This document shows positions 1,255 to 24,023 of a DNA stretch of 64,000 nucleotides, in pieces; the first letter of the stretch is position 1; each line of letters opens with the position of its first letter. Made by a program: the position numbers and the translations under genes. Source of the stretch: Chamaesiphon minutus PCC 6605 (lineage in GTDB: Bacteria; Cyanobacteriota; Cyanobacteriia; Cyanobacteriales; Chamaesiphonaceae); the NCBI RefSeq assembly GCF_000317145.1, contig NC_019697.1, positions 434,001-498,000 on the forward strand. Reading direction: 5' to 3'. The notes beneath the pieces are model-generated. The model was not told the DNA's origin. It saw only the letters and a list, made by a program, of their open reading frames with translations, and did no database searches.

Positions 1255-1327
1255 GGGGGATTTTCTACACCAGTTCTAGCGAGAAAATCCCCTCCGAGGA
1301 GGGGTGCCCGTAGGGCGGGGTGGGTAG
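1255..1327. repeat. Inverted repeat plus dispersed GC-rich repeat downstream of the tubulin-like cluster
   Basis: The gap 977-1364 holds no gene. It contains an inverted repeat (GGGGGATTTTCT at 1255-1266 against AGAAAATCCCC at 1281-1291), a CCCCTCCGAGGAGGGG hairpin, and a GC-rich block (GGGGTGCCCGTAGGGC) that recurs at about 5197 and, inverted and diverged, near 61940. Just upstream (about 1079-1250) a short motif, CAACCTTTCTTATA, occurs twice. The hairpin could end transcription of the cluster that stops at 1365, but there is no clean T-run. Confidence 0.6.
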
Positions 1328-1364
1328 ATCTCCGCTTTAACCAATCAACCCACGATCGATCCGC

Positions 1365-3041: not shown

Positions 3042-3125
3042 GATTTTACTTCCTTGATGTGAGTAGTAAATGTGGGAATTCCTAAACGTAACGATCGACT
3101 AGGTTCCAGCCCTTATCAGCTAAAT

Positions 3126-3452
3126 TCAACAGGTTGGATAATAACCGCGATCCTCGGTCAAAAACCCCAGATCTTTAAGGATGTGCGCTGCTGAAGTAGC
3201 CCGCTCGTCAGCGACGTAGATTTTGTAGTCTTCGACGAATTGACCGGGTTGTCGATCGATGATGCCTTCTTCGATGAGCTGAACGCCTTTTTCGAGGTTG
3301 GCTCTACTCAGACTGGCAACCCACAGGGGCGATTTGATGTGAATCTTCTGGTCATCGACTCCAGTGATATGGAGGATCTTGTTCCCGGCAACGGTAGGCA
3401 CGTCGGCTCCATTGCCATACCGTTGGCTGACTACAGCCCAATCTAGTGGCAT
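3126..3452 (-). CDS. Small unknown protein between two tubulin-like genes (108 aa)
   Basis: I do not recognise this family. The protein is soluble, has no signal peptide or membrane segment, and ends in GYYPTC with one C-terminal cysteine. The C-terminal half (about 50-105) looks helical and could be a small winged-helix or adaptor-type fold, but no motif proves it. It lies between the two tubulin-like genes on the same strand with gaps under 90 bp, and an AGGAGG-like ribosome site (cctcctttg on the plus strand near 3460-3468) precedes its ATG. The placement suggests a partner or regulator of the tubulin-like proteins; that is inference. Confidence 0.72.
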   Translation of the reverse strand: MPLDWAVVSQRYGNGADVPTVAGNKILHITGVDDQKIHIKSPLWVASLSRANLEKGVQLIEEGIIDRQPGQFVEDYKIYVADERATSAAHILKDLGFLTEDRGYYPTC

Positions 3453-3519
3453 GTTTACACCTCCTTTGTAGAGAGATTGATGTTAGAATTTTTCTGCCTA
3501 ACCTACGAGTACAACTAAC

Positions 3520-5082: not shown

Positions 5083-5159
5083 GATAAATCCTCTCTCAAA
5101 TTATCAATTTGTCAGAGTCGTCTCTGTCGTCTCTATACTCATTGTCAAAAAATTACCAG

Positions 5160-5245
5160 AAGGTTCCCTCCCAGGAGATCTGCCCAAAATTCCCCTCCTA
5201 TGAGGGGTGCCCGTAGGGCAGGACATATGTGTCTGGGTGGGTCAC
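5160..5245. repeat. Second copy of the GC-rich repeat upstream of the tubulin-like cluster
   Basis: The block CCCCTCCTATGAGGGGTGCCCGTAGGGC and its flanks resemble, in the same orientation, the sequence at 1283-1327. The two copies bracket the three tubulin-like genes. It lies in the 266-bp gap between amidase and tubulin-like gene B and could be a stem-loop (CCCTCCTATGAGGGG) or a dispersed element. Confidence 0.55.
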
Positions 5246-5348
5246 AGATCTACGTAACAACTCAGATCTCATAGTGCAGATGCGATCGAACGTCGATCGA
5301 GCGAATGAATCAACACTCGATCGATCTGCACCGCTAGCCAATCTAGAG

Positions 5349-6434
5349 TTAAACTGTGACTGACACTTTTTCAGTTTCGGGTACTACCACGACTGGCGGC
5401 GGGACAATCTTCTGGTTGGGAATCCCCTCGATCGGACATTCTGCCGTGCCAGCCGTCGATCGGGTAATCGCCTCTGCTTTGGCTTTGGCTTTTTGGGGAT
5501 CGAGAATCCACTCGCGGTAAAATTCGTAGGGACATTCGGCCATGCCATCGGGACCATCGCCAGAATTAATCGTACCCGTATAGCCGCGATGCATCAGTTT
5601 AAAGATGTGATTTTGCGACTGAGCGTTTTTGCGGAAGTCGCGAATCGCAAACTTCGAGAGCGCGGCGTATTGAATGCCATTTTCTTCTTCACCGCATTCA
5701 CCGAGCGTCCGCCCGTCAAAACCGACGATCGCTGAGTGTCCGAAGTAGCTATACACGCCATCAAATCCGGCAGCATTAGCTACGGCAACATAAGTATTAT
5801 TCATCCACGCCATCGCCTTGGCGACGATTATTTGTTGTTCCTTGGCGGGATACATGTAACCCTGACACCGCACGACGAGTTCGGCACCGCGCATCACGCA
5901 GTCTCGCCAGATTTCGGGATAGTTACCGTCATCGCAGATAATCAAGCTGATCTTCAGCCCTTTTGGCCCGTCGGAGACGTAAGTACACTTGCCGGGATAC
6001 CAACCTTCGATCGGCGTCCATGGCATGATTTTCTGATATTTCTGAACGATCTCACCGCGATCGTTCATCAGAATTAGGGTATTGTATGGGACTTTGCGTG
6101 GATGATCTTCATGCCGTTCGCCTGTTAGTGAAAAAACTCCCCACACTTTATTACGGATACAAGCTTCCGCAAAGATGGCTGTTTCTTCACCAGGTACAGT
6201 TGCGGCTGTATCCATCATTTCTTGCGGATCGTACATGATGCCATGAGTGGAATATTCAGGGAATATTACCAGATCCATTCCTGGTAGTCCTAGCTTCATG
6301 CCATCGATCGTGGTTGCAATTTTTTGGCAATTCTCAATAACTTCTGCTTTGGTATGTAATCGCGGCATTTTGTAGTTAACAACCGCAACTCCTACAGAGT
6401 CTTCACTCGAAGATATATCGCCATGATAAGACAT
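5349..6434 (-). CDS. amiE: Aliphatic amidase (EC 3.5.1.4)
   Basis: A 361-residue protein of the nitrilase/amidase superfamily, closely resembling AmiE: it opens with HGDISSS and [14 protein letters not shown] and runs colinearly. The catalytic triad is visible: Glu in FPEYS (about residue 63), Lys in YQKIMPW (about 138) and Cys in [10 protein letters not shown] (about 170). It hydrolyses short aliphatic amides to the carboxylate and ammonia in the cytoplasm, giving a nitrogen source. The C-terminal 20 residues form a Pro/Val-rich tail (PPPVVVVPE). It is upstream of the tubulin-like trio and the COG0523 GTPase on the same strand. In nitrile-degrading bacteria amidase and a P47K GTPase accompany nitrile hydratase; no hydratase gene is in the window. 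Confidence 0.95.
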
Positions 6435-7528
6435 GATAATTCTCCATTTATTATATTCAATCGGCTCGATGAATAACGCTCGAAGTGCTACATAAAGCTT
6501 GTTACATAAAGCTGTGGAATAGCTCTAGCAGTCGTATATTCACGATGTTCGTAGTATTTAAAAGCGATCGCCCAATATTATTGTTGACGATTCATCAGGC
6601 AGAACGGCCATACATGTCCTTGACCCTGTTGAATGACAACCAAAGTTTTAATTTGTTGTAGATATGTTAAGCCATCGAAAACGTCAATATTGTATCATCA
6701 GTTACCTGGCAATAATTATCTTGAATATTTCTGCTGAGTGACGATATTTATCTTGATAGTATAATAATTAAATTCACTTTTCACGACGCTCGGAGCCGTA
6801 AACTAAGCTAGTAAATCTCATCTTCAGCTCTGCGGCAAACGGTCTCTGGATACTAGATCGAGCTAAATTAACCGAGCTAAGTCAGTTCGAGATCGGAATA
6901 GGTGGAGGCGAAGCTAAAAGATATTAGTATTAACTATTTAGCACCTCTGCCCATGAATAGTTGATAAAAATTGTTCGGCGATCTCGACAATTTCTGCCAA
7001 AATTTTGAACCACAATGGCATTCACACCTCATCGAGCAGGGTTGGAAAACCCGCGATCGAGCTAGAAAGAGCCAAAATAATTAGCTGCAAACATAAGTAA
7101 ATTTGTAGCCAAATGAACCAATCTAATTACCAGCTAAATTGCTTCGTTAAGACTAATAAAATTTGTATCAATCGAGACAGAATTGTTCAAAACAACGACA
7201 AGTAACCAAAAGTTCAGATCGGTCGATCTCCTCAATCGCCCTAAAAGCGATTTAATGCCGATCGATAGTATCTATCGAACGACTGATGGAGATCCAGATA
7301 AAAGATGTAAAACTGATTGGAAGTTACAGGCTTCATAGATAGGAACGCCAATCGAATTGAGTTAGGTTTTAAACTACTTGCCAGACGATCGAGCTGTTGC
7401 CCAATGCATCCGCTTTTAAACATGTTCTTGAATCATCGCCGCTCCGCTCGGCATCACATTGCTCTTGCTTCAGCACTCAGGAGTGCAATTCATCTTGGCT
7501 ATTTATTTGTCAGTACTCGATATAAATA
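6435..7528. other. 1.1-kb gap without a recognisable gene
   Basis: No credible coding frame appears on either strand: short frames here lack ribosome sites and protein-like composition. It is the upstream region of amiE (minus) and of the HAD-like gene (plus), so promoters for both are expected. I see no tRNA, no clear terminator and no long repeat. AT-rich tracts lie around 6660-6790. Confidence 0.5.
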
Positions 7529-8098
7529 ATGAATAAGATTTCCCCCGACTCGTATTTACCAAATTTTTTTCAGCAAAATGCTCGCGAACATAGCTTGCCC
7601 AAACGAGCGAAGATTCTTGCTTCAGTCAGTCTTGGTCGCCTCATGGACTCAGCCATCCAAGGTATAATTATCGCGCTAGACAACACGATTGTTTCTGAAG
7701 ACGATCGCTACATATCTCCTTACGCCGTCACCTGGATAAATTTGGCGAAACAGTTAGGGTTTAAGATATTTATCCTTTCTAATGGCAAGCATACATATCG
7801 GGTTAAATTTTGGTCGAATCGACTAGATATCCCAGCCATTCACTCTGCTAGAAAACCATTTCCTACGGCCTTTCGTAGAGCACTAAGGCACATGCAACTC
7901 CCCCCCGAACGAGTAGTTGTCATTGGCGATAGTTATCATACCGATATTTTAGGTGCTTGGATTGCAGGCTGTCATAGCATTCAAGTTGCTTCTTTGCCTC
8001 ATCGCCCTAAATTGTGGGAAAAATTAATTGGCAGATACGTTCAAACTACTTACCCCAGAGGACAAGAACTGTGGGAGTTTAAATCATCGAATTACTAA
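7529..8098 (+). CDS. YqeG-like HAD-superfamily (subclass IIIA) protein with missing nucleophile
   Basis: A 189-residue protein whose layout follows the YqeG-type HAD phosphatases: motif I near residue 53, motif II SNG near 88 (IFILSNGKH), Lys of motif III near 111 (ARKPF) and motif IV VVIGDSYHTDILGAW near 128-142. Motif I, normally DxDNTL, reads ALDNT here, so the first Asp (the phosphoryl-accepting nucleophile) is Ala. It is probably not a phosphatase by the usual mechanism and may have become a binding or regulatory protein. ATG at 7529 is the first Met. It stands alone, 347 bp upstream of ndhC. Confidence 0.8.
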   Translation: MNKISPDSYLPNFFQQNAREHSLPKRAKILASVSLGRLMDSAIQGIIIALDNTIVSEDDRYISPYAVTWINLAKQLGFKIFILSNGKHTYRVKFWSNRLDIPAIHSARKPFPTAFRRALRHMQLPPERVVVIGDSYHTDILGAWIAGCHSIQVASLPHRPKLWEKLIGRYVQTTYPRGQELWEFKSSNY

Positions 8099-8445
8099 TT
8101 GCTTAACAATTAACTAAGCTCACATCTGGCGAGCGGTAGGCAGTTACTTGTGGATAGTGGATAGTGGATAGTCAATAGTGGATCGGCGTTGGCAAAGCCT
8201 CTGCGGGTAGCGGCGAGCCGCCGCTCCTTATCAAATTTCGCTACAGCTAGGAGAGAGATCCTATCCCCTAATACCTATATGTGGATAAAATAGTAAATAG
8301 ATTGAGTCTAGAGCACCAACGCAGCTAAATAATTATTCTTGCCAGCCGGATTGCGATCGCACGTAATGGGTTGCCAGATGTGAGTTATGGACTGCGCGTT
8401 CGGTGCCGAATCGATCGTTATCCCTTCATGACTATAAAATAATCT
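8099..8445. other. Gap upstream of ndhC with short tandem repeats
   Basis: No gene. A short tandem array of GTGGATA-like heptamers lies at about 8150-8180, followed by a GC-rich stretch (about 8184-8225). The rest should contain the promoter and leader of the ndhC-K-J operon; I cannot point to a specific -10/-35 pair with confidence. Confidence 0.5.
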
Positions 8446-8808
8446 GTGTTTGTCCTTAACGGTTATGAATATCTGCTCGGCTTCTTATTGACATGTAGCT
8501 TGGTGCCGATATTAGCCTTGTCAGCATCCAAATTACTCCGACCTAGTGGTGGTGGTCCCGAACGACGGACGACCTACGAATCAGGGATGGAGCCGATCGG
8601 TGGTGCCTGGATTCAGTTTAATATTCGGTACTATATGTTCGCCCTAGTCTTTGTCGTCTTTGACGTAGAGACCGTATTTTTATACCCTTGGGCAGTTGCA
8701 TTTAGTCAATTAGGCTTACTCGCTTTTATTGAAGCTCTCGTTTTCATCGCAATTCTGGTAATTGCGTTAGTCTATGCTTGGCGCAAAGGAGCCTTAGAAT
8801 GGTCATGA
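8446..8808 (+). CDS. ndhC: NDH-1 subunit 3 (NdhC)
   Basis: A 120-residue integral membrane subunit of the cyanobacterial NAD(P)H/ferredoxin:plastoquinone oxidoreductase in the thylakoid membrane, used in respiration, cyclic electron flow and CO2 uptake. It starts at GTG, giving the family-typical N-terminus [12 protein letters not shown]. Three membrane segments flank the conserved loop [16 protein letters not shown] and the acidic [11 protein letters not shown] segment, and it ends in the typical KGALEWS. Length is the usual one. Its stop overlaps the ndhK start by 10 nt, indicating coupled translation. Confidence 0.97.
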
Positions 8809-9530
8809 ACCCTGTGAATAAGATCGATACTTCCGAGCGGATTGCTAGTCCGATCGAGCGTCCGCAAGTAACGACCGATTTGTCAGAAAATGTGATTCTG
8901 ACAACGGTAGACGATCTCTACAACTGGTCGCGGTTATCCAGCCTGTGGCCGCTATTATTTGGGACGGCGTGCTGTTTTATCGAAATGGCGGCAATGATCG
9001 GTTCGAGATTTGATTTCGATCGGTTCGGACTGCTCCCGCGTGCTAGTACCCGTCAGGCCGATTTATTGATTACCGCTGGTACGATCACCATGAAAATGGC
9101 TCCAGCACTCGTGCGTCTCTACGAACAGATGCCCGAACCCAAGTATGTAATTGCAATGGGTGCCTGTACGATCACGGGTGGGATGTTTAGTGTAGACTCG
9201 CCGACAGCCGTGCGTGGTGTCGATAAACTGATTCCAGTCGATATCTACCTTCCTGGCTGTCCGCCGCGTCCAGAGGCAGTCATGGATGCAATTATCAAGC
9301 TACGCAAAAAAATCGCCAATGAGTCGATGCAAGAGCGGAGTAAATTAAATCAAACCCACCGCTATTACAGTACGACTCATAACATGAAAGTCGTACCCTC
9401 CATTTTGACAGGTGCCTATCTCCAAACTGGTACTCACGATAATCCGCCTGCGGAAATTGCGGCGGCAATGGGAATGCCTGTCACCCCAGCACTAGCTACC
9501 GCTCAAAAACAGGAGGTCGAACGTGGCTGA
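8799..9530 (+). CDS. ndhK: NDH-1 subunit K (NdhK, 4Fe-4S)
   Basis: A 243-residue peripheral-arm subunit carrying the N2-type [4Fe-4S] cluster. Ligands are visible as the adjacent Cys pair in GTACCFIE, Cys in MGACTITGG and Cys in PGCPPRPE. I chose ATG at 8799 because AAGGAG lies 6 nt before it, inside the end of ndhC; a TTG at 8778 would lengthen it but lacks support. The gene overlaps ndhC by 10 nt and ndhJ by 8 nt, so the three form one tightly coupled operon. Confidence 0.97.
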
Positions 9531-11037: not shown

Positions 11038-11424
11038 AAACTCGCTCCGCACGTAATTAGATACACATATTAGGTTTTAGATTCAAAACCTTTAATACTT
11101 CTTAATATAGCGATAATTGCTTCCATTCGACCATAGCAATTGTTACAGAAATTTTGTCGATCGCCTTTTAAGCTAATCCCAGCAACAACTCGAACGATTT
11201 GAGCTGCCAATAGTGAATTGACGGGAGGAACCTAAAAATGTTAATCATCTTCTGAGTGAAAACTAAAACAAAAACCGAAATCGGTACCCTCACCCTAAAT
11301 GTGTCATCGCATATTGATGACATCGCTTTTTAAAAACCAAAATTGTGATGCACTCACAGCTTAAATTCTTACAGTCATGAGTGCGTCCAGACATAGCTCT
11401 ACCATTACATCCCGTCCTCACTAT
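11038..11424. other. Divergent gap between bilin lyase and AMIN/beta-lactamase-fold genes
   Basis: No gene. The region must hold the promoters of both divergent genes. An alternative in-frame ATG for the right-hand gene lies at 11377. An AT-rich stretch near 11270-11345 contains GATGACATCG-type words, but no operator stands out. Confidence 0.4.
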
Positions 11425-12693
11425 ATGAAACTAAATTGGCTCCTCACCGGACTGATTGGCAGCGCGTGCTTATTGCTTGCCGCACCAGCGCAAGCAAGCA
11501 AGTTTACTGGCTGGGAATTCAAACCCGATCGCAATCAATTGAATTTTGGCACCGATACTGGAGTGCAACCCAAAGCCACCTTGCTCGATGGTCCCTACCG
11601 CCTAGTGGTCGATTTACCAGGCACCAAAATGACCGAAGCAACAGTGCGCAAGCAATACGGCGCGGCGGTGCGAGAAGTGCGAATTGCCCAATCTGACAGG
11701 AATACTACGCGCTTGGTGATGGAGTTGGCTCCAGGTTACGGTGTGAGTCCGCAGAATATTATTATTCGCAGCGATATTCCGTCCCGGTGGTCGATTAAAT
11801 TGCGAACGATCGAGCGGGGTGTTTCCACAGCTAGCACGGGTACGATTCAGACAGTCCCGATCGCGCCAATTATCTTTGCTGGGGTGGTGCCCATTGGCAA
11901 GGAAATGACCATTCTCAAGAGCCAAATTAAGGCTCTAGCGGCGAAGTATGGTTCCATCTCGCCAGGGATGTTTTTTATGGAAGTGGAGACGGGCAATTAT
12001 TTAGATATTAATGGGGAAAAGAGTTTTCCAGCGGCAAGTACGATTAAATTGCCCATTTTGATGGCACTGTTTCAAGCCGTCGATGCTGGCAAAATTAAGC
12101 TAGATGAAAAACTGACAGTCAGGCGCGATTTAATTACTGGTGGTTCGGGCAGACTGCAAAATAGTCGTGGAGCCAAATTGAGCGTGTTGCAAACCGCCAC
12201 CAAGATGATCGTCATTAGCGATAATACGGCGACGAATATGATTATCGACAGGTTGGGTGGGCGCAAAGCTCTCAATAGTAAGTTTAAGAGTTGGGGACTG
12301 CGTAAAACAGTTCTCAACCGGATGCTGGGAGATTTTAAGGGCACAAACACGACTAGTCCCGCAGATTTGGTGAGGTTATCAGCATTACTTGCCAAACGCC
12401 AATTAATTACAGAAACCAGCCGCAGCAAAGTTTTAGATATTCTCAATCAAACTGCCAATCGAAAGCTTTTACCCGCAGGTTTGGGTAAAGGTGCCGCAAT
12501 CGCACATAAGACGGGAACGTTGGGACGATTGATTGGAGATGCGGGAATTATTGAGATGCCTAATGGCAAATTGTATTTAGCCGGAATTTTTGTGAAGCGT
12601 TCGTTTAATGATGTGCGCGCTCGCGATTTTGTACAGGCGGTGTCGAAGTTGACTTATAACTATATTAATAATCGACAGGTAAGTCAGAAGTAG
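11425..12693 (+). CDS. AMIN domain plus serine beta-lactamase-fold protein (exported)
   Basis: From ATG 11425 the protein (422 aa) starts with a good signal peptide (KLNWLLTGLIGSACLLLAAPAQA). An AMIN domain (about residues 27-125), known to target cell-wall enzymes to peptidoglycan, is followed by a class-A beta-lactamase-type domain with the SxxK (STIK), SDN (SDNTA) and KTG (HKTGTLG) motifs. The omega-loop between SDN and KTG is short (GDFKGTNTTSPADL) and lacks the ExxxN with the deacylating Glu166 of true class-A enzymes, so a penicillin-binding or peptidase role in wall metabolism is at least as likely as drug hydrolysis. An upstream ATG at 11377 would add 16 residues before the signal. 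Confidence 0.82.
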   Translation: MKLNWLLTGLIGSACLLLAAPAQASKFTGWEFKPDRNQLNFGTDTGVQPKATLLDGPYRLVVDLPGTKMTEATVRKQYGAAVREVRIAQSDRNTTRLVMELAPGYGVSPQNIIIRSDIPSRWSIKLRTIERGVSTASTGTIQTVPIAPIIFAGVVPIGKEMTILKSQIKALAAKYGSISPGMFFMEVETGNYLDINGEKSFPAASTIKLPILMALFQAVDAGKIKLDEKLTVRRDLITGGSGRLQNSRGAKLSVLQTATKMIVISDNTATNMIIDRLGGRKALNSKFKSWGLRKTVLNRMLGDFKGTNTTSPADLVRLSALLAKRQLITETSRSKVLDILNQTANRKLLPAGLGKGAAIAHKTGTLGRLIGDAGIIEMPNGKLYLAGIFVKRSFNDVRARDFVQAVSKLTYNYINNRQVSQK

Positions 12694-13742: not shown

Positions 13743-16700
13743 ATGACGATGAGTGGCTTTAACTTTCACCTGAGTGGGTATCATCCGATCGAGGAGTTGT
13801 ATCGCGATGCCAAAACTGTAGTGTATCGGGCGATCCGCATGGGACAGGAGCTGGGGGCGGAGTCCGATCCTGTAGCGATTAAGATTTTGGCATCGGTATA
13901 TCCCACCGCACGCGAGTTGCAGGATTTTCGCCATCAATATGCGATTCTCCAGGGGAGCGACTTGCTCCCGATCGTGGAAGCGAGTCAAGACAGAGGCTCC
14001 ACCACCGCCAAGGAGTTAGATCTGTCGGGGATCGTGCGCGTGTATAGTTTGGAGACTTACGATCGCGGTTATGCGCTGGTAATGGAGGATTTTGGGGGGA
14101 TATCTTTAGAGCGGTATCGATACCAGGTGGGTGAAGTCGTTGAAGGTGTGCATTATTTAGCCGTCAGTGATGTCCTGAAGATCGCAATTCAAATTGCCGA
14201 TACATTGCACGCACTCGGACAAAAGCGGCTCGTACATAAAGATCTCAAACCTGCGAATATTCTAATTAATCCGACTACCCAACAGGTGAAGCTGATTGAC
14301 TTTAGCATTGCGTCGCTGTTGGAGCGAGAAACTCCAGAGTTGCTGAGTCCAGATTTATTGGCAGGAACCTTGGCATATATGCCGCCCGAACAAACGGGAC
14401 GAATGAATCGGGGCATCGATTATCGGAGCGACTTTTATGCGGTGGGTGTGACTTTATACGAACTGCTGACGGGTAGATTGCCATTTGAGGAGCGCGATCC
14501 GATCGAGTTAATCCACGCTCATCTCAATCGGGCAGCAGTAAGTGTCGATCGAGTCAACCTCACCGTACCATCCGTTATCGCTCAAATCGTGGCCAAACTG
14601 ATGGCCAAAAATGCTGAAGATCGATATCAGAGTGCTTTAGGACTTAAGTATGACTTGAAGCAGTGTCTCAGCCAATGGCAAGCGACGGGAACGATCGCGA
14701 AGTTTGAATTGGGCGAGCGGGATCTGAGCGATCGGTTTGTAATTCCCGAACATCTGTATGGGCGCGAATCGGCGATCGCCACTTTGATGGCTGCTGTTGC
14801 TGACATGGCGGCGGGGAGTAGCGAATTGGTATTGGTGGCGGGAGGTTCGGGGATTGGCAAAACTGCTGTTATCAATGAAGTCCACAAACCGATAACTCGT
14901 CATCATGGCTATTTTATTAGAGGCAAATTCGACCAATTCAATCGCGATCTGCCGCTGTGGGGTTTCGTCTGCGCCTTGCGGGACTTAATTGGGCAACTAA
15001 TGAATGAAAGTGACGCGCGATTGGCAGCCTGGAAGAGTCGGATTTTGACAGCAGTGGGCGACAATGGCAGGGTACTATGTGCAGCTATTCCAGAGCTAGA
15101 AAGGATTATCGGCTGTCAACCACCCGTGACGGAGCTATCGGGAACCGCAGCCCAAAATCGCTTTAAGTTGTTATTCCAAAAAGCGATCGAGGTATTTGCC
15201 CAGCCAGAGCATCCATTGACGATTTTCTTGGATGACTTGCAGTGGGCAGATTCGGCGTCTTTAGAGTCGATCGAATTGTTGCTGCAAGGGACGGGACATT
15301 TATTGATTGTCGGAGCGTATCGGGACAATGAAGTCTCACCCAGCCATCCATTGATGTTGACAGTTGCCAAATTGCCAGAAGCTGGACAGAATGTGCGCAC
15401 TATTACTTTAGCACCCCTAACTTTCGACGATACCGATCGATTGGTGGCGGATACTCTCCGTTGTTCGCCGCACCGCGCGCAACCGCTAACCGAATTAATC
15501 TATCTCAAAACTGAAGGCAATCCTTTTTTTATTATCCAGTTTCTCAAGGCATTACACGCCGATGGCGAGATTTGGTTTAACGCTAAAGGCTATTGGGAGT
15601 GCGATATCTTGCGGGTACAAGCTTTGGCACTGAGCGATAATGTGGTGGAATTTATGGCAGCACAGTTGCAAAAATTGCCCCCAGCCACCCAGAATCTGCT
15701 GAAATTAGCCGCTTGTATCGGTGAAAAGTTCGACTTGGAGACACTATCGATCGTCTCCGAACAGTCTACAGCGGACACAGCTACAGCACTCTGGGAGGGA
15801 TTGCAAGCTGGGTCGATCTTGCCTAGTAGTTACATATACCAATTCGATCGGGATTTACAGGATTCACAAGATTTACAAGATTACGCTGGTGCGAGTCACG
15901 ATCCCGATCCTCTCCACTCCCCCACTCCCCGACTCCCCCACTCCCCGACTCTCCCACTCCCCGCTCCACTCTTCCGCTTCCTCCACGATCGCGTTCAGCA
16001 AGCTGCGTACTCGTTGATTCCAGAGAGTCGGCGACAACAAACGCATTTACAGATCGGGCGGTTATTGCTCGCTCATGCGTCAGAGCGACAGCCGTTGGCA
16101 AAGTTGTTTGAGATTGTCAGTCATTTTAATAAAGCGATCGGTGCGATCTCGGAACCGTCCGAACGCGTGCTGGTGGCAGAATTGAATCTCCAGGCGGCGT
16201 GTAAAGCTAGAGCTACCAATGCTTATGGTGCAGCCTTTAGTTATGCACAGATCGGTACGGAGATTTTGGGTGTTTCGGGATGGACGCAGCAATATCTGTT
16301 GACGCTAGCACTCCATGAAACCTTAGCGGATGCGGCGTTACTCAGCGGTGACTTGGAATCGGTGCCTAGATTAGTGCAAATTGTTTTGGAGCGGACGCGA
16401 ACGCCGATCGATCGAGTCAAAGCTTATGAAACGACGATCCATTTTCATGCGATCCGCCAGCAGCACCAAGCGGCGGTTGCGCGGGGATTGGAAATTCTGC
16501 ACCAGTTGGGCATTAAGTTATCGCCAACACCCGATCGATTGACGATTGTTAGGGAATTAGCGAAAACGAAGCTTGCTTTAGCTGGCAAATCCGATCGACA
16601 ATTGTTAGATTTGCCCCAGATCGACGATCCGGTAAAGATGGCGAAGCTGCGGATCTTAGATTTGATGCAGGCTCCCGCTTTTTTCTGTTCTCAAGAATTG

Positions 16701-19700
16701 ATGGCAGTATTGAGTATGGTCGGGATTCGGCTGACTTTACTCGATGGCAATAGCCCTTGGGCGGCGAGTTTTTATGTTACATATTGCATTGTCATATCTG
16801 GATTGGGCGAATTAAAACAGACTTATCGGCTGGGGCAATTGGCAACGATTTTAGTCGATCGATTTGGGCATCCATCGATTTCGGCACGAGTCAAAGTAGT
16901 TGCGGCTTGGTATACAAAACCTTGGCAAGAGCGATTGCGAACTACAATTCCACTGTTGGATGAGAGTGTGCGCATGGCGATGGATAGTAGCAATCTTCAG
17001 TATATCGGCATCAATGCTGGTGTCTCGATCGCGACGAGATTCTACGCTGGCATTCCTTTAGATGAGTTAGTCGATCGAATTGAGCCGTTAGAAAAATTAA
17101 TCGTTATATCTAAGGATGAGAATAGCCAACAGTTTTTCGATTTGATGCGCCAAACGATCGAGAATTTACACATCCCATCCACTCGACCGATCGATATTTT
17201 CAAGGGGCAAGATGAGCTGTCATTAGTATCTCAATGGCAAGCTAAAAATGAAGCCATTCTGTTATCGACGATGTATGGTTTTCAAACTTTACTGGCTTAT
17301 CACTTTGAAGATATTTCTGCCGCGCTCATCTATGCAAACGCTCAATTACCTTATGAATATTCTGCCAAAGGTGGTTATTCGATCGCGCGGATTTGGCTAT
17401 TCGATGCTCTTACACGCTTGGCATCGTATCCCCAACAAGCCGAGCGAATTCAAAAACAATTACTCCAACGCGTCGATGAGACTCAGAGCGAGTTAGGCAA
17501 ACGAGCGCGCTTGATGCCTGCTAATTTTCAACATCAGCACGATCTGGTGGCAGCCGAAAAATGTCGGGTATTGGCAGATTTTACCCAAGCGATCGAATTA
17601 TACGATCGGGCGATCGCCAATGCTAAGGCAAATGAGTATCTACAAGAAGAAGCCTTAGCTAACGAATTAGCGGCGAAGTTTTATCTCGATTGGGGTAAAG
17701 TCAAAATCGCAGCGGTGTACATGCAGGATGCCTATTATTGCTATGCGCGTTGGGGTGCTAAAGCCAAAACTAATGACTTAGAACGCCGCTATCCTCAACT
17801 GCTTGCGCCGATCCTGCAAGCACAGCAGCTAGAATTTAATTCCCTGTGTACCCTAGCCAAAATTACCAATTCGTCCGATCTCGCTAGTTGTCAAGGTGCA
17901 ACTTTAGATTTGGTTTCGGTAATTCAATCGGCTCAAGCTCTATCTGGCAACCTCGAACTCGAAGAACTGATCCACCAACTGAGCCAAGTCATCCTCCAAA
18001 ATTCTGGTGCTCAAACCTGTATCTTGGCGTTGCCCGATCGTCAGGATAACTGGCAGATTCGTTCGATTTCCACTCTCAAGGCTGCGGAAATTGCCACTAC
18101 AGCCCTGTGTCCGGCACTGATAAATAGCGACGCATATCCAGCTAACCTAATTTATTGGATTAAAAATACTCAAGCTACTGTCGTCTTCGATGCCAGACAA
18201 CCATTAGAGGTGCCCGATCTCTACTTGCTCAAACATCAGCCGCCCAGTGTATTGGCATTGCCGATCGTCAAGCAGGACATGGTTTTGGGCGTATTGTATC
18301 TCGAACACCGCCAGATCCCCGATTTATTTACAGATAACCACAAAACTGCGATTTCGTTTTTGTGTACCCAAGCCGCGATCGCGCTCCACAACGCTCAACT
18401 CCACGAATCTGTCGTCCAACGTTCTGCGGCGATCGAAGCATCTTTAGATGGCTTTGCGATCCTCGATGGCGGTCGCTTTATTTATGTCAATCAGAGCCAT
18501 ACCGAGATGTTTGGCTATAGCGTCGCCGAAATGCTCGATCGAGATTGGCAGTGTCTCTATTCACCTGCCCAAATTCAAGAGTTTGAAACCACTGCCTTTC
18601 CTGCTGTCGGCACATCACGGCAATGGCGTGGCGAAGCTGTCGCGATTCGCAAGGATGGTAGCACTTTCAATGAAGAAGTAACTTTATTTTTGCTTGACAA
18701 CGGGCAACTAATCTGCATCTGTCGAGATATTACCGATCGAAAATCGATGGAAATCGCCCTGCGCGAATCAGAAGAACGATATCACCAACTCGTCTCCAAT
18801 GTACCGGGCGCGCTCTATCAGTTTGAGGTTACCGCTGAGGGTACTCATCGACTCAATTATGTAAGTGCCAGATTTTACGAAATCTTTGAGATTTTGCCGG
18901 ATGTAGTAGTGGACGATCTTGCGGTCTTGTTAGCCCAAATCTTACCAGCAGACCGCCCTAGCTTCGATCGATCGATTAAAAAGGCCACTAAATTGGGCAA
19001 GTCATGGATGTGGCAAGGACGCATCTCTACCCCGACAGGGAAAACCAAATGGATTCGCGGCGAATCCCGACAGATCGATACTCCCAATGGCACATTGGCG
19101 CAGCCTCTGGGCGAAAGAATGGTATGGGATGGGATTTTGGTAGATGTGACCGAACAGCAAGCCGCTTTACACGAACGCCAGCTCGCTGAAATCGCCCTGC
19201 GTCAGTCCGAAGCTCGCTACCAGAAGTTAGCAGATAATATTCCTGGCGTTATCTATCAATTCCGATTGGCTCCAGATGGACACCTCAGTTATCCATATAT
19301 GAGTTCGGGCTGCTGGGATCTATTTGAAATTTCCCCCGCAGCAGTCATGGCTGATGCCAACTCTCTGTTGAAGATGATGCATCCAGGGGATGCGCTAGAT
19401 TATCACAGTACGATGGTAGAATCTGCCCAAAATCTAACGCCTAAATTTTGGGAAGGTCGAGCAATCCTAAATTCTGGAGAGATTAAATGGATTAAATGCG
19501 TCTCCCGTCCAGAGCGACAACTCGATGAGTCGATTGTCTGGGATGGGGTATTGTTAGATATTACCGCCCAAAAAGCCGCACAACAAGAACGCCAACGCCA
19601 AGAAGATGCCCTCCAAGCGATCGTATCTTGGTCGGCGGAGGGCAAGACGGGGATCGATTTTTATCAAGCCTGCATTCGCTATCTCGCCGACAGCTTTGGC

Positions 19701-22109
19701 GTCCAGTATGCTTTTTTGGCCAAACCGAGCGATCGATCGGCAACTAAGACTGAAGTGGTATCCCTCTGGACGGGCACCGAATTTGTAGCAGGTTCCGAAC
19801 TAGATTTAGCGGATAATCCTTGCGGCATTACTTACCAAAATGATTGGGGAATTTTTCCCGACAACCTCCAGTTACATTTTCCCAACGCCCCCATCATTGC
19901 CAGTTTGCAAGGTGAAAGTTACCTCAGCGTATCAATCCGCGATTTTGAAGGCCAGATTTTTGGCAATCTCGGCATCATCGATACCCAGCCGTTACCCGCA
20001 GATATTTCGGCTTTACAATTTATCATCCAACTGTTTGCCGATCGCATTGCCGCCGAGATGAAGCGTCAAGCCGATGAATCCGAACTCCGCAAACGCCAAC
20101 AGCAAATCGAGGGATTTATCGACAATTCATCAGCAGCAATGTATCTCAAAGATTTGGAGGGACGCTATCTGCTGGTCAATCAAACTTGTATCGATTTGAT
20201 GGATGGGAATTTACACTTAATCTTAGGGCACACCGATGATGACATTTTCCCCTTCGAGATCGCCAAACAATCGCGGGAAACAGATCTAGCCATTATGAGA
20301 TCCGGTCTAGCTAAAACGTTAGAAGAGCTAGTTATCCATCCTGATGGTACAGAACATACCTATATTTCTAACAAATTTGCACTGATCGACGAGGAGGGTA
20401 AGCCTTATGCACTCGGCGGCGTATCTACAGATATTACCGCTCGCAAACAAGTAGAAGCAGAGCTGGCTCGATCGCAACGCAAATATTACAGCCTAATTCA
20501 ATCGATCGATGGAGTCGTCTGGGAATACGATCTCCGCACCAAGCGATTTAGTTTTGTCAGCGATCGCGCACTCTCATTATTTGGCTATACGATGGAAGAG
20601 TGGCTCGTTTTAGATGATTTTTGGCAACAGCACGTCCATCCAGATGATTTCGAGATAACCCGCATCTTCTTTAAGGAGGCGATTAAAAACAATCGTAGTG
20701 GTGCGGTCGAGTATCGGTTAATTACCGCTGCTGGGGAGATAATTTGGGTTTACGATATTTTTACGCCTCTGTGCGATGAAGCTGGCCGACCGATATTAAT
20801 GAATGGTTTATTAATTAATATTACCGATCGCAAGCAAGCTGAAGACACCCTCCACCACACTAATCTTCAGCTCGAAGCGACCATCCAGGAACTTCAGGAG
20901 GCCACGCGCCTTAAGGACGAGTTTCTCGCGATTATGAGTCACGAACTCCGCACGCCGCTCAATGCGATTTTGGGAATGTCTGAAGCCTTGCTAGACGAAG
21001 TATTCGGTGCTCTCAATCCCAAACAACTTAACTCGATCTCGACGATCGAGCGCAGCGGCGAGCATTTATTATCGGTAATTAACGATATTCTCGATGTCTC
21101 CAAAATTGCTGCGGGCAAACTCGAACTGAATATCGCTGAGGTTGCTCTAGCCGAATTATGTCGATCGAGTCTGACTTTAGTCAAACAACAGGCGATTAAA
21201 AAGCAGATTCAGATCGATACCGATCTCCCCACAAATCTAGATCTCATCGCGGTTGACGAACGGCGGATGCGTCAAGTTTTAATCAACTTACTCAATAATG
21301 CTGTCAAATTTACGCATCAAGGGGGGCTAATCAAGCTTTCGGTCTGGGCCGAACCCCTCGCTCCCATGAGTGCTGCCGAGCGTTCCCAAGATTATTGTCT
21401 GTGTTTTGCCGTCAGCGACACGGGGATTGGCATCAGCGATGTCGATCGAGCCAAGCTGTTTCAACCCTTTATCCAGATCGATAGCCGTCTGGCTCGCAAA
21501 TATCAAGGGACTGGATTGGGACTTGTGCTCGTCAAACAAATTACCGAATTACACGGCGGTCAAATTACTGTCGATAGCCAAGTAAATCGCGGTAGTTGCT
21601 TTACAGTCATGCTGCCCCAAACTTACAGTCCATCTAACGCGGTAAATCTAGATAGCAGGCAGCGTTCGGCGTTAGCTGCGGTCGATCGTCCGCACTTACA
21701 CGTCTGGACGGCTCCACAGATCTTGCTAATTGAAGATGATCGAGTCACGATCGATACCTTCTCTAGCTATCTAATGGCTATCGGCTATCGCGTCATGGTG
21801 GCTCAAACCGGAGCGCAGGCGATGTCCATTCTGGAGGGCTGTTGCGCCACTGCGTCAATCGCACACAGCCCTCGTCCCGCCCTGATTTTGATGAATATTC
21901 ACATGCCTGGACTCGATAGCATCGCTACCATCGAGTGGATTCGCCAACATTCCCCCCAAGTTCACATCCCGATTATCGCCCTCACCACCCTCTCCACGAT
22001 CGGCGAACGCGAAAAATGCTCGAACTACGATGCCGATAAATACCTCACTAAGCCAGTCAAACTGCGCGAACTCCACCAGCATATTCAGGAGTGCTTGGAC
22101 CTTAATTAG
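13743..22109 (+). CDS. Giant Ser/Thr kinase-ATPase-GAF-PAS-histidine kinase-receiver protein (2,788 aa)
   Basis: One polypeptide with, in order: a Ser/Thr protein kinase (residues about 10-290; PVAIKIL lysine, HKD catalytic loop with Asp167, DFS, PPEQTGR); an AAA-type predicted ATPase (YGRE, P-loop GGSGIGKT 367-374, FLDDLQWAD); a long TPR-like helical region; GAF (about 1395-1555); at least five PAS/PAC modules with a second GAF-like segment (about 1570-2360); HisKA with His2400 in SHELRTPLN; HATPase_c with intact NLLNNAVKF, DTGIGI and GTGLGL; and a C-terminal receiver. The receiver's phosphosite reads LILMNIHMPG, Asn2718 instead of Asp, so it should not accept phosphate. The layout matches the HstK-type dual kinases of filamentous cyanobacteria. 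Start 13743 (ATG) is a choice; TTG 13710 would add 11 residues. Confidence 0.93.
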   Translation: MTMSGFNFHLSGYHPIEELYRDAKTVVYRAIRMGQELGAESDPVAIKILASVYPTARELQDFRHQYAILQGSDLLPIVEASQDRGSTTAKELDLSGIVRVYSLETYDRGYALVMEDFGGISLERYRYQVGEVVEGVHYLAVSDVLKIAIQIADTLHALGQKRLVHKDLKPANILINPTTQQVKLIDFSIASLLERETPELLSPDLLAGTLAYMPPEQTGRMNRGIDYRSDFYAVGVTLYELLTGRLPFEERDPIELIHAHLNRAAVSVDRVNLTVPSVIAQIVAKLMAKNAEDRYQSALGLKYDLKQCLSQWQATGTIAKFELGERDLSDRFVIPEHLYGRESAIATLMAAVADMAAGSSELVLVAGGSGIGKTAVINEVHKPITRHHGYFIRGKFDQFNRDLPLWGFVCALRDLIGQLMNESDARLAAWKSRILTAVGDNGRVLCAAIPELERIIGCQPPVTELSGTAAQNRFKLLFQKAIEVFAQPEHPLTIFLDDLQWADSASLESIELLLQGTGHLLIVGAYRDNEVSPSHPLMLTVAKLPEAGQNVRTITLAPLTFDDTDRLVADTLRCSPHRAQPLTELIYLKTEGNPFFIIQFLKALHADGEIWFNAKGYWECDILRVQALALSDNVVEFMAAQLQKLPPATQNLLKLAACIGEKFDLETLSIVSEQSTADTATALWEGLQAGSILPSSYIYQFDRDLQDSQDLQDYAGASHDPDPLHSPTPRLPHSPTLPLPAPLFRFLHDRVQQAAYSLIPESRRQQTHLQIGRLLLAHASERQPLAKLFEIVSHFNKAIGAISEPSERVLVAELNLQAACKARATNAYGAAFSYAQIGTEILGVSGWTQQYLLTLALHETLADAALLSGDLESVPRLVQIVLERTRTPIDRVKAYETTIHFHAIRQQHQAAVARGLEILHQLGIKLSPTPDRLTIVRELAKTKLALAGKSDRQLLDLPQIDDPVKMAKLRILDLMQAPAFFCSQELMAVLSMVGIRLTLLDGNSPWAASFYVTYCIVISGLGELKQTYRLGQLATILVDRFGHPSISARVKVVAAWYTKPWQERLRTTIPLLDESVRMAMDSSNLQYIGINAGVSIATRFYAGIPLDELVDRIEPLEKLIVISKDENSQQFFDLMRQTIENLHIPSTRPIDIFKGQDELSLVSQWQAKNEAILLSTMYGFQTLLAYHFEDISAALIYANAQLPYEYSAKGGYSIARIWLFDALTRLASYPQQAERIQKQLLQRVDETQSELGKRARLMPANFQHQHDLVAAEKCRVLADFTQAIELYDRAIANAKANEYLQEEALANELAAKFYLDWGKVKIAAVYMQDAYYCYARWGAKAKTNDLERRYPQLLAPILQAQQLEFNSLCTLAKITNSSDLASCQGATLDLVSVIQSAQALSGNLELEELIHQLSQVILQNSGAQTCILALPDRQDNWQIRSISTLKAAEIATTALCPALINSDAYPANLIYWIKNTQATVVFDARQPLEVPDLYLLKHQPPSVLALPIVKQDMVLGVLYLEHRQIPDLFTDNHKTAISFLCTQAAIALHNAQLHESVVQRSAAIEASLDGFAILDGGRFIYVNQSHTEMFGYSVAEMLDRDWQCLYSPAQIQEFETTAFPAVGTSRQWRGEAVAIRKDGSTFNEEVTLFLLDNGQLICICRDITDRKSMEIALRESEERYHQLVSNVPGALYQFEVTAEGTHRLNYVSARFYEIFEILPDVVVDDLAVLLAQILPADRPSFDRSIKKATKLGKSWMWQGRISTPTGKTKWIRGESRQIDTPNGTLAQPLGERMVWDGILVDVTEQQAALHERQLAEIALRQSEARYQKLADNIPGVIYQFRLAPDGHLSYPYMSSGCWDLFEISPAAVMADANSLLKMMHPGDALDYHSTMVESAQNLTPKFWEGRAILNSGEIKWIKCVSRPERQLDESIVWDGVLLDITAQKAAQQERQRQEDALQAIVSWSAEGKTGIDFYQACIRYLADSFGVQYAFLAKPSDRSATKTEVVSLWTGTEFVAGSELDLADNPCGITYQNDWGIFPDNLQLHFPNAPIIASLQGESYLSVSIRDFEGQIFGNLGIIDTQPLPADISALQFIIQLFADRIAAEMKRQADESELRKRQQQIEGFIDNSSAAMYLKDLEGRYLLVNQTCIDLMDGNLHLILGHTDDDIFPFEIAKQSRETDLAIMRSGLAKTLEELVIHPDGTEHTYISNKFALIDEEGKPYALGGVSTDITARKQVEAELARSQRKYYSLIQSIDGVVWEYDLRTKRFSFVSDRALSLFGYTMEEWLVLDDFWQQHVHPDDFEITRIFFKEAIKNNRSGAVEYRLITAAGEIIWVYDIFTPLCDEAGRPILMNGLLINITDRKQAEDTLHHTNLQLEATIQELQEATRLKDEFLAIMSHELRTPLNAILGMSEALLDEVFGALNPKQLNSISTIERSGEHLLSVINDILDVSKIAAGKLELNIAEVALAELCRSSLTLVKQQAIKKQIQIDTDLPTNLDLIAVDERRMRQVLINLLNNAVKFTHQGGLIKLSVWAEPLAPMSAAERSQDYCLCFAVSDTGIGISDVDRAKLFQPFIQIDSRLARKYQGTGLGLVLVKQITELHGGQITVDSQVNRGSCFTVMLPQTYSPSNAVNLDSRQRSALAAVDRPHLHVWTAPQILLIEDDRVTIDTFSSYLMAIGYRVMVAQTGAQAMSILEGCCATASIAHSPRPALILMNIHMPGLDSIATIEWIRQHSPQVHIPIIALTTLSTIGEREKCSNYDADKYLTKPVKLRELHQHIQECLDLN
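15900..15972. repeat. STRR-like CCCCACT/CCCCGACT array inside the kinase gene
   Basis: CTCCCCCACTCCCCGACT-type repeats, like the intergenic arrays of this genome, are read in frame as a His/Ser/Pro/Leu low-complexity stretch (SPTPRLPHSPTLPLP, about residues 725-740). It is preceded by a QDLQDSQDLQD repeat. It interrupts the ATPase/helical region just before FRFLHDRVQQAAYSL, a block conserved in this ATPase family. Confidence 0.85.
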
Positions 22110-22136
22110 GGAGGGGAGGGGGGGACGCAAGCGTTT

Positions 22137-22204
22137 GCCTAAAGCCTAAAGCCTAAAGCCTAAAGCCTAAAGCCTAAAGCCTAAAGCCTAAAGCCTAAAG
22201 CCTA
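22137..22204. repeat. (GCCTAAA)n heptamer array, about 9 copies
   Basis: Inverse-complement orientation of the array at 12692-12769, starting some 25 bp after the giant kinase stop. The rest of the 22110-22538 gap holds no gene and presumably the promoter of the next kinase gene. Confidence 0.95.
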
Positions 22205-22538
22205 GATCCCGCTCACATCGATCGGCGCACAATTTGGGTATACTTAATATGTAGTGTTAAATCGATTACTGGATTTAACCAGCTTGCATGACACTCATCG
22301 ATCGCCAAATCTAGCACAGAGATACGAATTTAATAATTACTAATTATGATTTCTAATTCTGGAGGCTCAGCTTTCCAATTCAAAGCGATCGAATTAATTT
22401 ATACGAACCATAAATAATCAAGTAGAATCTGCTATTGTCATACATCATATCGATCGGCATAGCTCGCTCCGATCTAACTATAAATTTAAACTTTCAAAAA
22501 TCTACCGTAAGTAAAAGTAATAGCTTGAATTTTTGCTC

Positions 22539-24023
22539 ATGAATTGTCAGGATGAATATGAATTTATAGAAGCAGCGCAAGCAAAAACTTTGGAAGAATA
22601 TGCGATCGAGATCGATCGAATAGAACGAGCGATTCTAGCAGCTCAATCCGCTCACTCTCCCGAAGCAGAAGCGATCGCCAACGAACGCGCCAGTAATTTT
22701 TATGCAGCGTGGGGTAAAGAGAAAATCGCCGCAGTATATTTGCAAGATGCTTACGATTGCTACGTTCGAGCCGGAGTTACCACAAAAATAACCGAACTCG
22801 AACAATGTTATCCACAATTATTGCAATCTATCCAAAGCCCATCTATTGCGGCAACTAACTACTTCACCGACGAGTTTATTGCCACCCTCAGCCATGAATT
22901 TCGCAACCCCCTCAATGGCATTTTGGGCATGTCAGAAGCATTATTAGAAGAAGTCTTCGGTGTCATGAACGAACGACAACTTAATGCCGTCACGACGATC
23001 GATCGCAGTGGCGGGTATTTGCTCGCACTTGTGAATAACATGACAGATCTGTCTCAAATTCAAGTCGGTAAACTAGAACTAGAGCTGACGCAGGTTTCGG
23101 TGGTAGAACTCTGTCAGTTTAGTGCCAGCTTTGTCAAACACCATGCCATCCAAAAACAGATCCAACTAGATACACACATCCCTACCGATGCTGGCATGAT
23201 TCGCGTCGATCTTCAGCGGATGCGCCAAGTATTAATTAACTTACTCGATCGAGCGATCGATGCCACCCCCATTGGCGGTCAGGTGAAACTAACAGTGACT
23301 CGCCAGCCAGAAGGGACGATAGCGGGTGCCAAATCATCCATTCATTTTGCTGTGAGCGACACTAGTAAAGAGATTCCTGTTGCTAGCGAAGATGAATTAT
23401 TTCAACCGATCCTTCCGAGCCTCCCCATGCAAGGCTACACCAACGATAGCCACCATGTCGGCTTAGGCTTAATGCTCGTCAATCCGATCGTCGAATTGCA
23501 TGGCGGTACGCTCACTTGTCAAAGTATTATCGGTCAGGGTACCCATATTGCCGTATCACTGCCACATACCTGTCTGGTTTTTGAGCCTCAAAGCGAGCCT
23601 AGCCGCTCGCCTGACTATCTCGGTACTATTTCCGAAACTATCGTCGAGGAAGCAATCGAACCACCACTGATTCTCATCGTCGAAGATAACGAACTAAATA
23701 TCAATACGATTTCTAGCTACCTCACCGTCAAAGGCTATCGTCCGATTGTCGCTCAAGATGGCGAATCAGCACTAAAACTCGCCCAAAAACACTGTCCCGA
23801 TCTCATTTTGATGGATATTCAAATGCCTGGAATGGACGGCTTAGAGGCAATCTCTCGCATTCGCGAACATCCCCAACTAACAAGCATTCCCATCGTCGCG
23901 CTCACAGCTCTAGCCATGGAAGGAGATCGCGACAAATGCTTGAGTGCAGGTGCCAATGACTATCTCACCAAACCAGTTAAGCTCAAACAACTCAATCAAA
24001 CTATTCAGCAGTGGTTGGGGTAG
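22539..24023 (+). CDS. Shortened hybrid histidine kinase paralog with degraded ATPase and intact receiver
   Basis: A 494-residue protein. Residues about 40-90 match the end of the helical region of the giant kinase (ANERASNFYAAWGKEKIAAVYLQDAYDCY against its ANELAAKFYLDWGKVKIAAVYMQDAYYCY); GAF and PAS modules are absent, and HisKA follows with His119 in SHEFRNPLN. The ATPase domain is degraded: the N-box reads NLLDRAIDAT (essential Asn lost) and the G1 box DTSKEI replaces DTGIGI, while HVGLGLMLV survives. The receiver is intact (IVEDNELN, Asp426 in LILMDIQMPGMD, LTKPVK). ATG 22539 is preferred over TTG 22533. It likely acts as phosphoacceptor rather than kinase, probably with the upstream protein (inference). 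Confidence 0.9.
   Translation: MNCQDEYEFIEAAQAKTLEEYAIEIDRIERAILAAQSAHSPEAEAIANERASNFYAAWGKEKIAAVYLQDAYDCYVRAGVTTKITELEQCYPQLLQSIQSPSIAATNYFTDEFIATLSHEFRNPLNGILGMSEALLEEVFGVMNERQLNAVTTIDRSGGYLLALVNNMTDLSQIQVGKLELELTQVSVVELCQFSASFVKHHAIQKQIQLDTHIPTDAGMIRVDLQRMRQVLINLLDRAIDATPIGGQVKLTVTRQPEGTIAGAKSSIHFAVSDTSKEIPVASEDELFQPILPSLPMQGYTNDSHHVGLGLMLVNPIVELHGGTLTCQSIIGQGTHIAVSLPHTCLVFEPQSEPSRSPDYLGTISETIVEEAIEPPLILIVEDNELNINTISSYLTVKGYRPIVAQDGESALKLAQKHCPDLILMDIQMPGMDGLEAISRIREHPQLTSIPIVALTALAMEGDRDKCLSAGANDYLTKPVKLKQLNQTIQQWLG

What the first reader, a model, noticed from the sequence alone, without database searches (positions are those of the whole stretch)
13743..24023. Two adjacent kinases with complementary defects: live ATPase with dead receiver, dead ATPase with live receiver
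In the giant kinase the histidine kinase core is intact but the receiver phosphosite is Asn2718. In the next gene the N-box and G1 box are destroyed while the receiver keeps Asp426. Both share a helical segment and HisKA/receiver sequences, so the second arose from the first by internal deletion. The pair looks like a duplicated kinase whose functions have been partitioned, with phosphate passing from the first kinase to the receiver of the second, possibly through HisKA heterodimers.
Basis: partly seen in the sequence, partly recalled or inferred. Interest (0 to 1): 0.78.

Follow-up and report, generated by a model that had tools for sequence, protein, structure and literature searches.

The report
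Split kinase pair in Chamaesiphon cyanobacteria
Two neighbouring signalling genes of a cyanobacterium look like one sensor kinase whose jobs were divided, the first keeping the engine that makes the phosphate signal and the second keeping the part that receives it; related species mostly show the same division, but no experiment has yet shown phosphate passing between them.

Summary
The giant kinase (13743-22109) has an intact HisKA/ATPase core but Asn2718 in its receiver; the next gene (22539-24023) keeps His119 and receiver Asp426 but has lost the N-box Asn and G1. Nearest named relatives are Chamaesiphon. The second gene was found in 6 of 9 genomes of the genus: ATPase dead in 6 of 6, receiver Asp kept in 5 of 5 seen. 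The giant was found in 7 of 9: receiver absent (3), Asn (2), missing a metal-binding acid (1), intact (1); 6 of 38 other cores lack a working receiver. Constraint mirrors this, though only gene 2's ATPase is clearly outside the control range. Descent of gene 2 from the adjacent giant is unresolved. Best reading: the giant supplies phosphate to the second receiver in trans, as reported for LvrA/LvrB and EspA/EspC, gene 2 being a natural pseudokinase; direct transfer versus HisKA heterodimers stays open. The exception, G004, has an intact giant receiver and none of the shared flanking genes. New variant of a known kind.

The parts
13743..22109 (+). Giant Ser/Thr kinase + AAA_16 + GAF + PAS + hybrid histidine kinase (2788 aa; upstream alternative TTG start at 13710)
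14010..14630 (+). Ser/Thr protein kinase domain (aa 90-296)
   Evidence: Pfam Pkinase
14754..15311 (+). AAA_16 domain (aa 338-523)
17508..17837 (+). Helical segment shared with the N-terminus of gene 2 (aa 1256-1365)
17955..18386 (+). GAF domain (aa 1405-1548)
18420..20807 (+). PAS region (aa 1560-2355)
20913..21116 (+). HisKA, phosphoacceptor His2400 at 20940-20942
21255..21620 (+). HATPase_c with intact N, G1, F and G2 boxes
21720..22088 (+). Pseudo-receiver: phosphosite is Asn2718 at 21894-21896; acidic pair, Thr and Lys kept
   Evidence: Asn also in G003
22239..22244 (+). TATACT element in the spacer, also seen upstream of the second gene in the other four genomes whose spacer was read (TACACT in G001); possible own promoter
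   Evidence: pattern match only, no chance estimate
22539..24023 (+). Second hybrid kinase, pseudokinase with live receiver (494 aa; alternative TTG start at 22533)
22539..22832 (+). N-terminal helical domain (aa 1-98) homologous to the giant's helical segment
22872..23063 (+). HisKA with H-box SHEFRNPL, His119 at 22893-22895
23208..23567 (+). Degenerate HATPase_c: N-box 23238-23267 (NLLDRAIDAT), G1 23358-23375 (DTSKEI), lid region of low model confidence
23670..24005 (+). Intact receiver, Asp426 at 23814-23816

Best explanation
The pair is a hybrid kinase split over two proteins. The giant integrates signals (GAF, PAS, AAA and Ser/Thr kinase modules) and autophosphorylates its HisKA His with its intact ATPase. 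Gene 2 should not bind ATP in the usual way and therefore takes its phosphate from the giant: the final acceptor is the Asp of the gene 2 receiver. The giant's own receiver thereby became dispensable and was lost, or lost its phosphosite or metal site, in several lineages. Shown: the residues, their conservation across genomes, the shared neighbourhood and the domain-specific constraint. Inferred: loss of ATP binding and that phosphate passes between the two. Open: whether it goes straight from the giant's His to the gene 2 receiver, or through a HisKA heterodimer in which the giant's ATPase phosphorylates His119 of gene 2 first. The receiver has no attached output domain, so it must act on a partner; the genome has 15 HPt domain matches that could take the phosphate on.
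For: Second gene found in 6 of 9 Chamaesiphon genomes; N-box and G1 dead in 6 of 6, receiver Asp intact in 5 of 5 in which it is seen, H-box SHEFRNPL in 5 of 5 seen. Giant receiver non-functional or absent in 6 of 7: Asn in G000 and G003, metal-binding acid replaced by Ser in G005, absent in G001, G006, G007, against 6 of 38 other cores (Fisher p 0.0007, not corrected for kinship). Sister-genus giants (G009, G010) lack a receiver too. Reciprocal constraint in G000/G004/G005: gene 2 HisKA 0.88, ATPase 0.55, receiver 0.815 identity; giant 0.83, 0.73, 0.59; ratio of ratios 3.69, bootstrap 95% interval 2.35-6.19. In close pairs dN/dS is about 0.16-0.23 in the dead ATPase and about 0.22 in the Asn receiver, so neither decays freely. 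Giant and second gene are adjacent in 5 of 5 genomes in which both lie on one contig, with shared flanking genes in G006 (complete) and in part in G001, G005 and G008. The HK853/RR468 specificity positions agree in 4 of 5 between the two HisKA domains of the window, and the receiver signature LNTY is seen only in the 5 second genes and the one intact giant receiver, of 57 receivers that the pattern caught behind 52 of 66 cores.
Against: The G004 giant keeps an intact Asp receiver next to a dead-ATPase gene 2, and none of the flanking genes tested was found around the G004 pair in the 19 kb held. Sister-genus giants lack a receiver although the hybrid kinase some 5 kb away has a live ATPase, so receiver loss does not need a pseudokinase partner. 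The giant's receiver divergence is at the edge of, not clearly beyond, 11 control pairs. Gene 2 has a frameshift before the H-box in G006, an in-frame TAG in the linker in G008 and an unread receiver at a contig end in G001; all are draft assemblies. The spacer has a possible promoter, so co-transcription is not assured. No phosphotransfer data.
Confidence: 0.5

Rival explanations
1. Phosphate siphon or phosphatase: gene 2 (His, Glu and Asn of the H-box kept, no ATPase, live receiver) drains or removes phosphate from the giant or from its unknown regulator and damps the pathway, as RetS does to GacS, instead of carrying the signal on.
For: SHEFRN keeps the ExxT/N residues linked to phosphatase activity of HisKA domains (motif recalled; conservation); HisKA is the best conserved domain of gene 2 (0.88); the receiver has no output domain; a review describes RetS siphoning phosphate from the GacS DHp and dephosphorylating its receiver (PMC12189002, passages); RetS and DivL structures are among the best fold matches.
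Against: No sign in sequence of the direction of flow; T-to-N at H+4 is compatible with kinase and phosphatase roles alike (recalled).
Confidence: 0.22
2. Independent decay: two members of a large, fast-turning kinase family lost different parts for unrelated reasons, and their adjacency is incidental.
For: Pseudo-receivers are not rare (PMC12632262: about 6% of bacterial receivers, 2.0% lack Asp; sections read); 6 of 38 other cores lack a working receiver; the giant receiver's rate is at the edge of the control range; broken reading frames in two draft genomes.
Against: dN/dS well below 1 in the close pairs that are not saturated (the exception is the G001 receiver, 0.93 with G008 over 46 codons that include its divergent contig end); gene 2 HisKA and receiver kept with all key residues; repeated receiver loss in giants; conserved neighbourhood except in G004.
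Confidence: 0.17
3. The gene 2 receiver is charged by other kinases or by acetyl phosphate, and the dead core is only a dimeric scaffold; the giant is one of many donors.
For: Receiver and HisKA specificity positions are similar across many paralogues; the genome has 89 HATPase_c matches.
Against: Adjacency with the giant in every genome where both were seen on one contig and the LNTY signature confined to the second genes and the intact giant receiver (one giant only).
Confidence: 0.11

Closest known systems
EspA/EspC of Myxococcus xanthus (Schramm et al. 2012, cited in a passage of PMC8175716; the paper itself is not held, so its details are recalled)
   Same: Two hybrid kinases with intra- and interprotein phosphotransfer; the kinase of one is thought to phosphorylate the receiver of the other, whose own ATPase is dispensable (recalled).
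   Different: EspC keeps a working ATPase (recalled); here it is destroyed by evolution. Most giants here have lost or damaged their receiver.
LvrA/LvrB of Leptospira (PMC5863495: abstract and passages)
   Same: Adjacent hybrid-kinase genes; LvrA phosphorylates the receiver of LvrB; gene duplication is part of their history.
   Different: LvrB has its receiver at the N-terminus and is an active kinase; LvrA keeps its receiver Asp and prefers it.
HstK / cbSTKIII dual kinases of cyanobacteria (PMC2176072: passages)
   Same: The giant has the N-terminal Ser/Thr kinase, GAF and C-terminal HisKA layout; adjacent, co-transcribed members (Alr0709/Alr0710) are described.
   Different: No complementary loss between neighbours is mentioned in the passages seen.
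DivL, RetS and other pseudo- or non-canonical histidine kinases (PMC12189002: passages; PMC12632262: abstract and two sections)
   Same: HK-like protein that works on another kinase instead of as a normal kinase of its own.
   Different: DivL lacks the phosphoacceptor His (recalled); gene 2 keeps His, lacks the ATP-binding residues and carries a live receiver.

Membership tests
HstK / cbSTKIII dual kinase (giant) | N-terminal Ser/Thr kinase, at least one GAF, C-terminal HisKA | tested here: met
   Pfam; definition from PMC2176072 passages
Hybrid histidine kinase (giant) | HisKA + HATPase_c + receiver with Asp | tested here: not met
   Core intact, receiver Asp is Asn2718
Hybrid histidine kinase (gene 2) | HisKA + HATPase_c with N and G1 boxes + receiver with Asp | tested here: not met
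   N-box Asn and G1 lost; receiver intact
Pseudo-histidine kinase (gene 2) | HK fold lacking at least one function such as ATP binding | tested here: inconclusive
   By motif met in 6 of 6 orthologues; ATPase fold predicted but 290-306 at pLDDT under 50. ATP binding itself not assayed
Pseudo-receiver (giant) | Receiver lacking a key catalytic residue | tested here: met
   Asn2718, also Asn in G003
EspA/EspC-type interprotein phosphotransfer | Kinase of one protein phosphorylates the receiver of the other | not testable with these tools
   needs a phosphotransfer assay
LvrA/LvrB-type dyad | Adjacent, co-oriented hybrid-kinase genes | tested here: met
LvrA/LvrB-type dyad | Co-transcription | tested here: inconclusive
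   Spacer about 430 bases in the window, 50-110 in G006/G001, possible promoter element
RcsC/RcsD | Second protein carries an HPt domain | tested here: not met
   No HPt in gene 2 by Pfam at E<=0.01
RetS/GacS heterodimer | Physical HisKA heterodimer | not testable with these tools
   no complex prediction available

The most novel reading that the evidence does not exclude
An obligate two-subunit hybrid kinase: giant and gene 2 form HisKA heterodimers in which the giant's ATPase phosphorylates His119 of gene 2 in trans and gene 2 passes the phosphate in cis to Asp426, so that kinase and receiver functions are permanently divided between paralogues.
Probability: 0.22. Interest if true: 0.68.

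Novelty: new variant of a known kind. Interest (0 to 1): 0.52.

Why it matters
Cross-talk between hybrid kinases is usually worked out from laboratory mutants. Here evolution has removed the ATP-binding residues of one partner and, in most lineages, the working receiver of the other, which makes the direction of transfer a clear prediction and gives a series of natural genotypes (intact, Asn, metal-site, receiver absent) for asking how duplicated kinases divide their work and why a pseudokinase keeps its phosphoacceptor His.

Tried and rejected
Internal deletion of the adjacent giant as the origin of gene 2: not supported as stated. The core tree puts the second genes nearer to other paralogues (94/83; the bootstrap had not settled), the AU tests do not separate the options (p 0.425-0.62), and receiver and helical-segment trees give separate clades. 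Kinship of the G004 giant receiver with the gene 2 receivers (for example by gene conversion): not favoured and not rejected, AU p 0.181.

Wider distribution: a profile of the second genes in 388 genomes of the order (191 with any match at E<=1e-80; at most three candidates scored a genome) gave 732-936 bits for the five long orthologues and 473 or less for everything else listed; the G008 fragment scores 461 over part of the profile. A plasmid search to name the strain gave no match. Absence of gene 2 in G002, G003 and G007 is not claimed: the giant contigs of G003 and G007 end within or just after the giant, and G002 has no giant match above 58% identity. The giant was not found in G008 (best 55%, 77% complete).

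Structure: model of gene 2 has mean pLDDT 82.1 and pTM 0.54; domain placement is not reliable and no complex could be modelled. The fold search returned histidine kinases, among them ShkA, DivL, HK853 and RetS (top 50 seen).

Literature: searches for HstK with Anabaena, EspA/EspC (two), pseudo-histidine kinases (two), heterodimers, Chamaesiphon with histidine kinase (1 paper, a glacier virome), and hybrid kinase with pseudokinase listed no paper whose title or abstract start describes this pair; full texts were not read for it, beyond the passages cited. RcsC/RcsD was looked at by abstract only (PMC3762810); passages of PMC6791715 gave nothing of use.
Full report
What is there. The giant gene (13743-22109) encodes a Ser/Thr kinase, AAA_16, a helical segment, GAF, several PAS domains, HisKA, HATPase_c and a receiver; the next gene (22539-24023) encodes a helical segment, HisKA, HATPase_c and a receiver. 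The giant core is intact (NLLNNAVKFT, DTGIGI, GTGLGL); gene 2 has NLLDRAIDAT, DTSKEI and HVGLGL. In the same genome 80 HATPase_c domains were examined of 89 matches (the nine left out score 49 bits or less): only gene 2 lacks the N-box Asn, and 7 others have an altered G1 with the Asn kept. The predicted structure keeps the ATPase fold, but the lid region (290-306) is below pLDDT 50.

Which organism. The window lies on a 6.28 Mb contig of a 6.76 Mb genome. The contigs that carry the pair in four same-genus relatives reappear in the named collection as Chamaesiphon (three) and an uncultured cyanobacterium (one). That the strain is C. minutus PCC 6605 is my recollection of the genome size and is not shown; the plasmid search found nothing.

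Orthologues. A profile of the second genes gives 732-936 bits to five long orthologues and at most 473 bits to everything else listed from 388 genomes of the order; a sixth, partial one is in G008. The flank (beta-lactamase-like gene, a 204-aa ORF, giant, second gene, a 155-aa ORF, exodeoxyribonuclease III) is complete in G006 and present in part in G001, G005 and G008 as far as their contigs reach; in G004 none of these flanking genes was found in the 19 kb held, and another hybrid kinase lies upstream. The ATPase of the second gene is dead in 6 of 6, with the common derived motif DTSK(E/D)(I/V); the H-box SHEFRNPL is kept in 5 of 5 seen and the receiver Asp in 5 of 5 seen (G001 ends at a contig edge, G008 starts after the HisKA). 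Giants found in 7 of 9 genomes: receiver Asn in G000 and G003, metal-binding Asp replaced by Ser in G005, receiver absent in G001, G006 and G007, intact in G004. Receivers of the four giants that keep one are a clade (97/93), so the missing ones are best read as losses.

Against background. Of 38 other cores in the 50-row tree set, 4 have no receiver and 2 have a defective one (the acidic pair of one more, L225 2975-4714, was not checked); 6 of 7 against 6 of 38 gives Fisher p 0.0007, without correction for kinship. Two of the four without a receiver are the sister-genus giants, which are kin of the giants here. An earlier count found 3 defective of 96 rows, two of them these giants, before more loci were fetched and with some overlapping rows. 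The G004 locus L225 adds another Asn receiver in a different kinase, so such losses do occur elsewhere.

Constraint. For G000, G004 and G005, mean identities are: gene 2 HisKA 0.88, ATPase 0.55, receiver 0.815; giant HisKA 0.83, ATPase 0.73, receiver 0.59. The ratio of ratios is 3.69 (bootstrap interval 2.35-6.19). In 11 control pairs (pairs of orthologues or paralogues, not triples), ATPase minus receiver identity ranges from -0.09 to +0.14; gene 2 (-0.26) is far outside, the giant (+0.14) is at the edge. So the relaxed ATPase of gene 2 is clear, and relaxation of the giant receiver rests on residues and losses, not on rate. In close pairs dN/dS is about 0.16-0.23 in the dead ATPase (G001, G006, G008) and about 0.22 in the Asn receiver (G000/G003), so both are still constrained; the G001 receiver gives 0.31 and 0.93 over 46 codons that include its divergent contig end (NG86 estimates, the other pairs are saturated in dS).

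Origin. The giants, the second genes and several other kinases form a family-specific clade (95/93), and the second genes are one clade of their own (100/100), present in all sampled lineages where the locus was read, hence older than these species. The tree places them nearer to other paralogues than to the giants (94/83), but enforced alternatives are not rejected (AU p 0.425-0.62). The helical segment is shared, so an internal deletion in some multi-kinase ancestor is plausible; that the ancestor was this giant is not shown. In the sister genus a giant without receiver lies about 5 kb from a hybrid kinase with live ATPase and receiver, with other genes between.

Mechanism. Gene 2 has lost the residues that bind ATP and kept His, H-box and receiver; the giant has kept the kinase. 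The simplest reading is phosphate transfer from the giant to the gene 2 receiver. Positions that set HK853/RR468 specificity (positions from PDB titles, mapping by recall) agree in 4 of 5 in the two HisKA domains of the window (AGATR and GGATR), and the receiver signature LNTY is seen only in the five second genes and the only intact giant receiver among 57 receivers that the pattern caught; this is suggestive, as one giant carries it and 14 of 66 cores had no receiver caught. Published work supports the idea that kin hybrid kinases can share receivers: three of nine receiver swaps into GacS worked, predictably from kinship (PMC8175716, abstract, passages and one section), LvrA phosphorylates LvrB (PMC5863495, abstract and passages), LadS signals through the GacS HPt (PMC4866733, abstract). 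EspA/EspC is cited in PMC8175716 and otherwise recalled. Why gene 2 keeps a highly conserved HisKA with His, Glu and Asn is the main open point: heterodimer acceptor, phosphatase, or both.

Verdict. The finding is real and its evolutionary test came out largely in its favour, with one clear exception (G004). It is a new variant of known hybrid-kinase cross-talk. I found no biochemical evidence for this pair.

Noticed in passing
L066 (G004:C56) 203-6520 and 6716-8005, + strand: Another neighbouring pair in the same genus with a different split: an intact giant hybrid kinase followed by a 430-aa kinase whose H-box reads SNEVRTPL (phosphoacceptor His is Asn) with N-box Asn, G1 and G2 largely kept and no receiver.
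   Followed up: partly
L225 (G004:C53) 1379-2971, - strand: A hybrid kinase in a kinase cluster whose C-terminal receiver has Asn at the phosphosite and Ala in the acidic pair.
   Followed up: no
window 22110-22538: The spacer holds about nine tandem CCTAAAG heptamers and, further on, GGGTATACT; GGGTA(T/C)ACT also stands in the spacers of G001, G005 and G006, and AGATATACT in that of G004.
   Followed up: partly
L062 about 6700-6720; L075 linker between ATPase and receiver; L063 1-70: The second gene has a frameshift just before the H-box (G006), an in-frame TAG between ATPase and receiver (G008) and a divergent end at a contig edge (G001); draft assembly error or real breakage is undecided.
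   Followed up: partly
L222 (G000:C1:990000-1002000) 5070-9086, - strand: Paralogous hybrid kinase of the same genome whose receiver reads VENDE, so one acid of the metal site is Asn; a separate receiver-containing ORF lies next to it.
   Followed up: no
window 11377-12693: ORF with a class A beta-lactamase-like domain, below the cut-offs of the 25 NCBIfam families shown, conserved next to the pair in G006.
   Followed up: no
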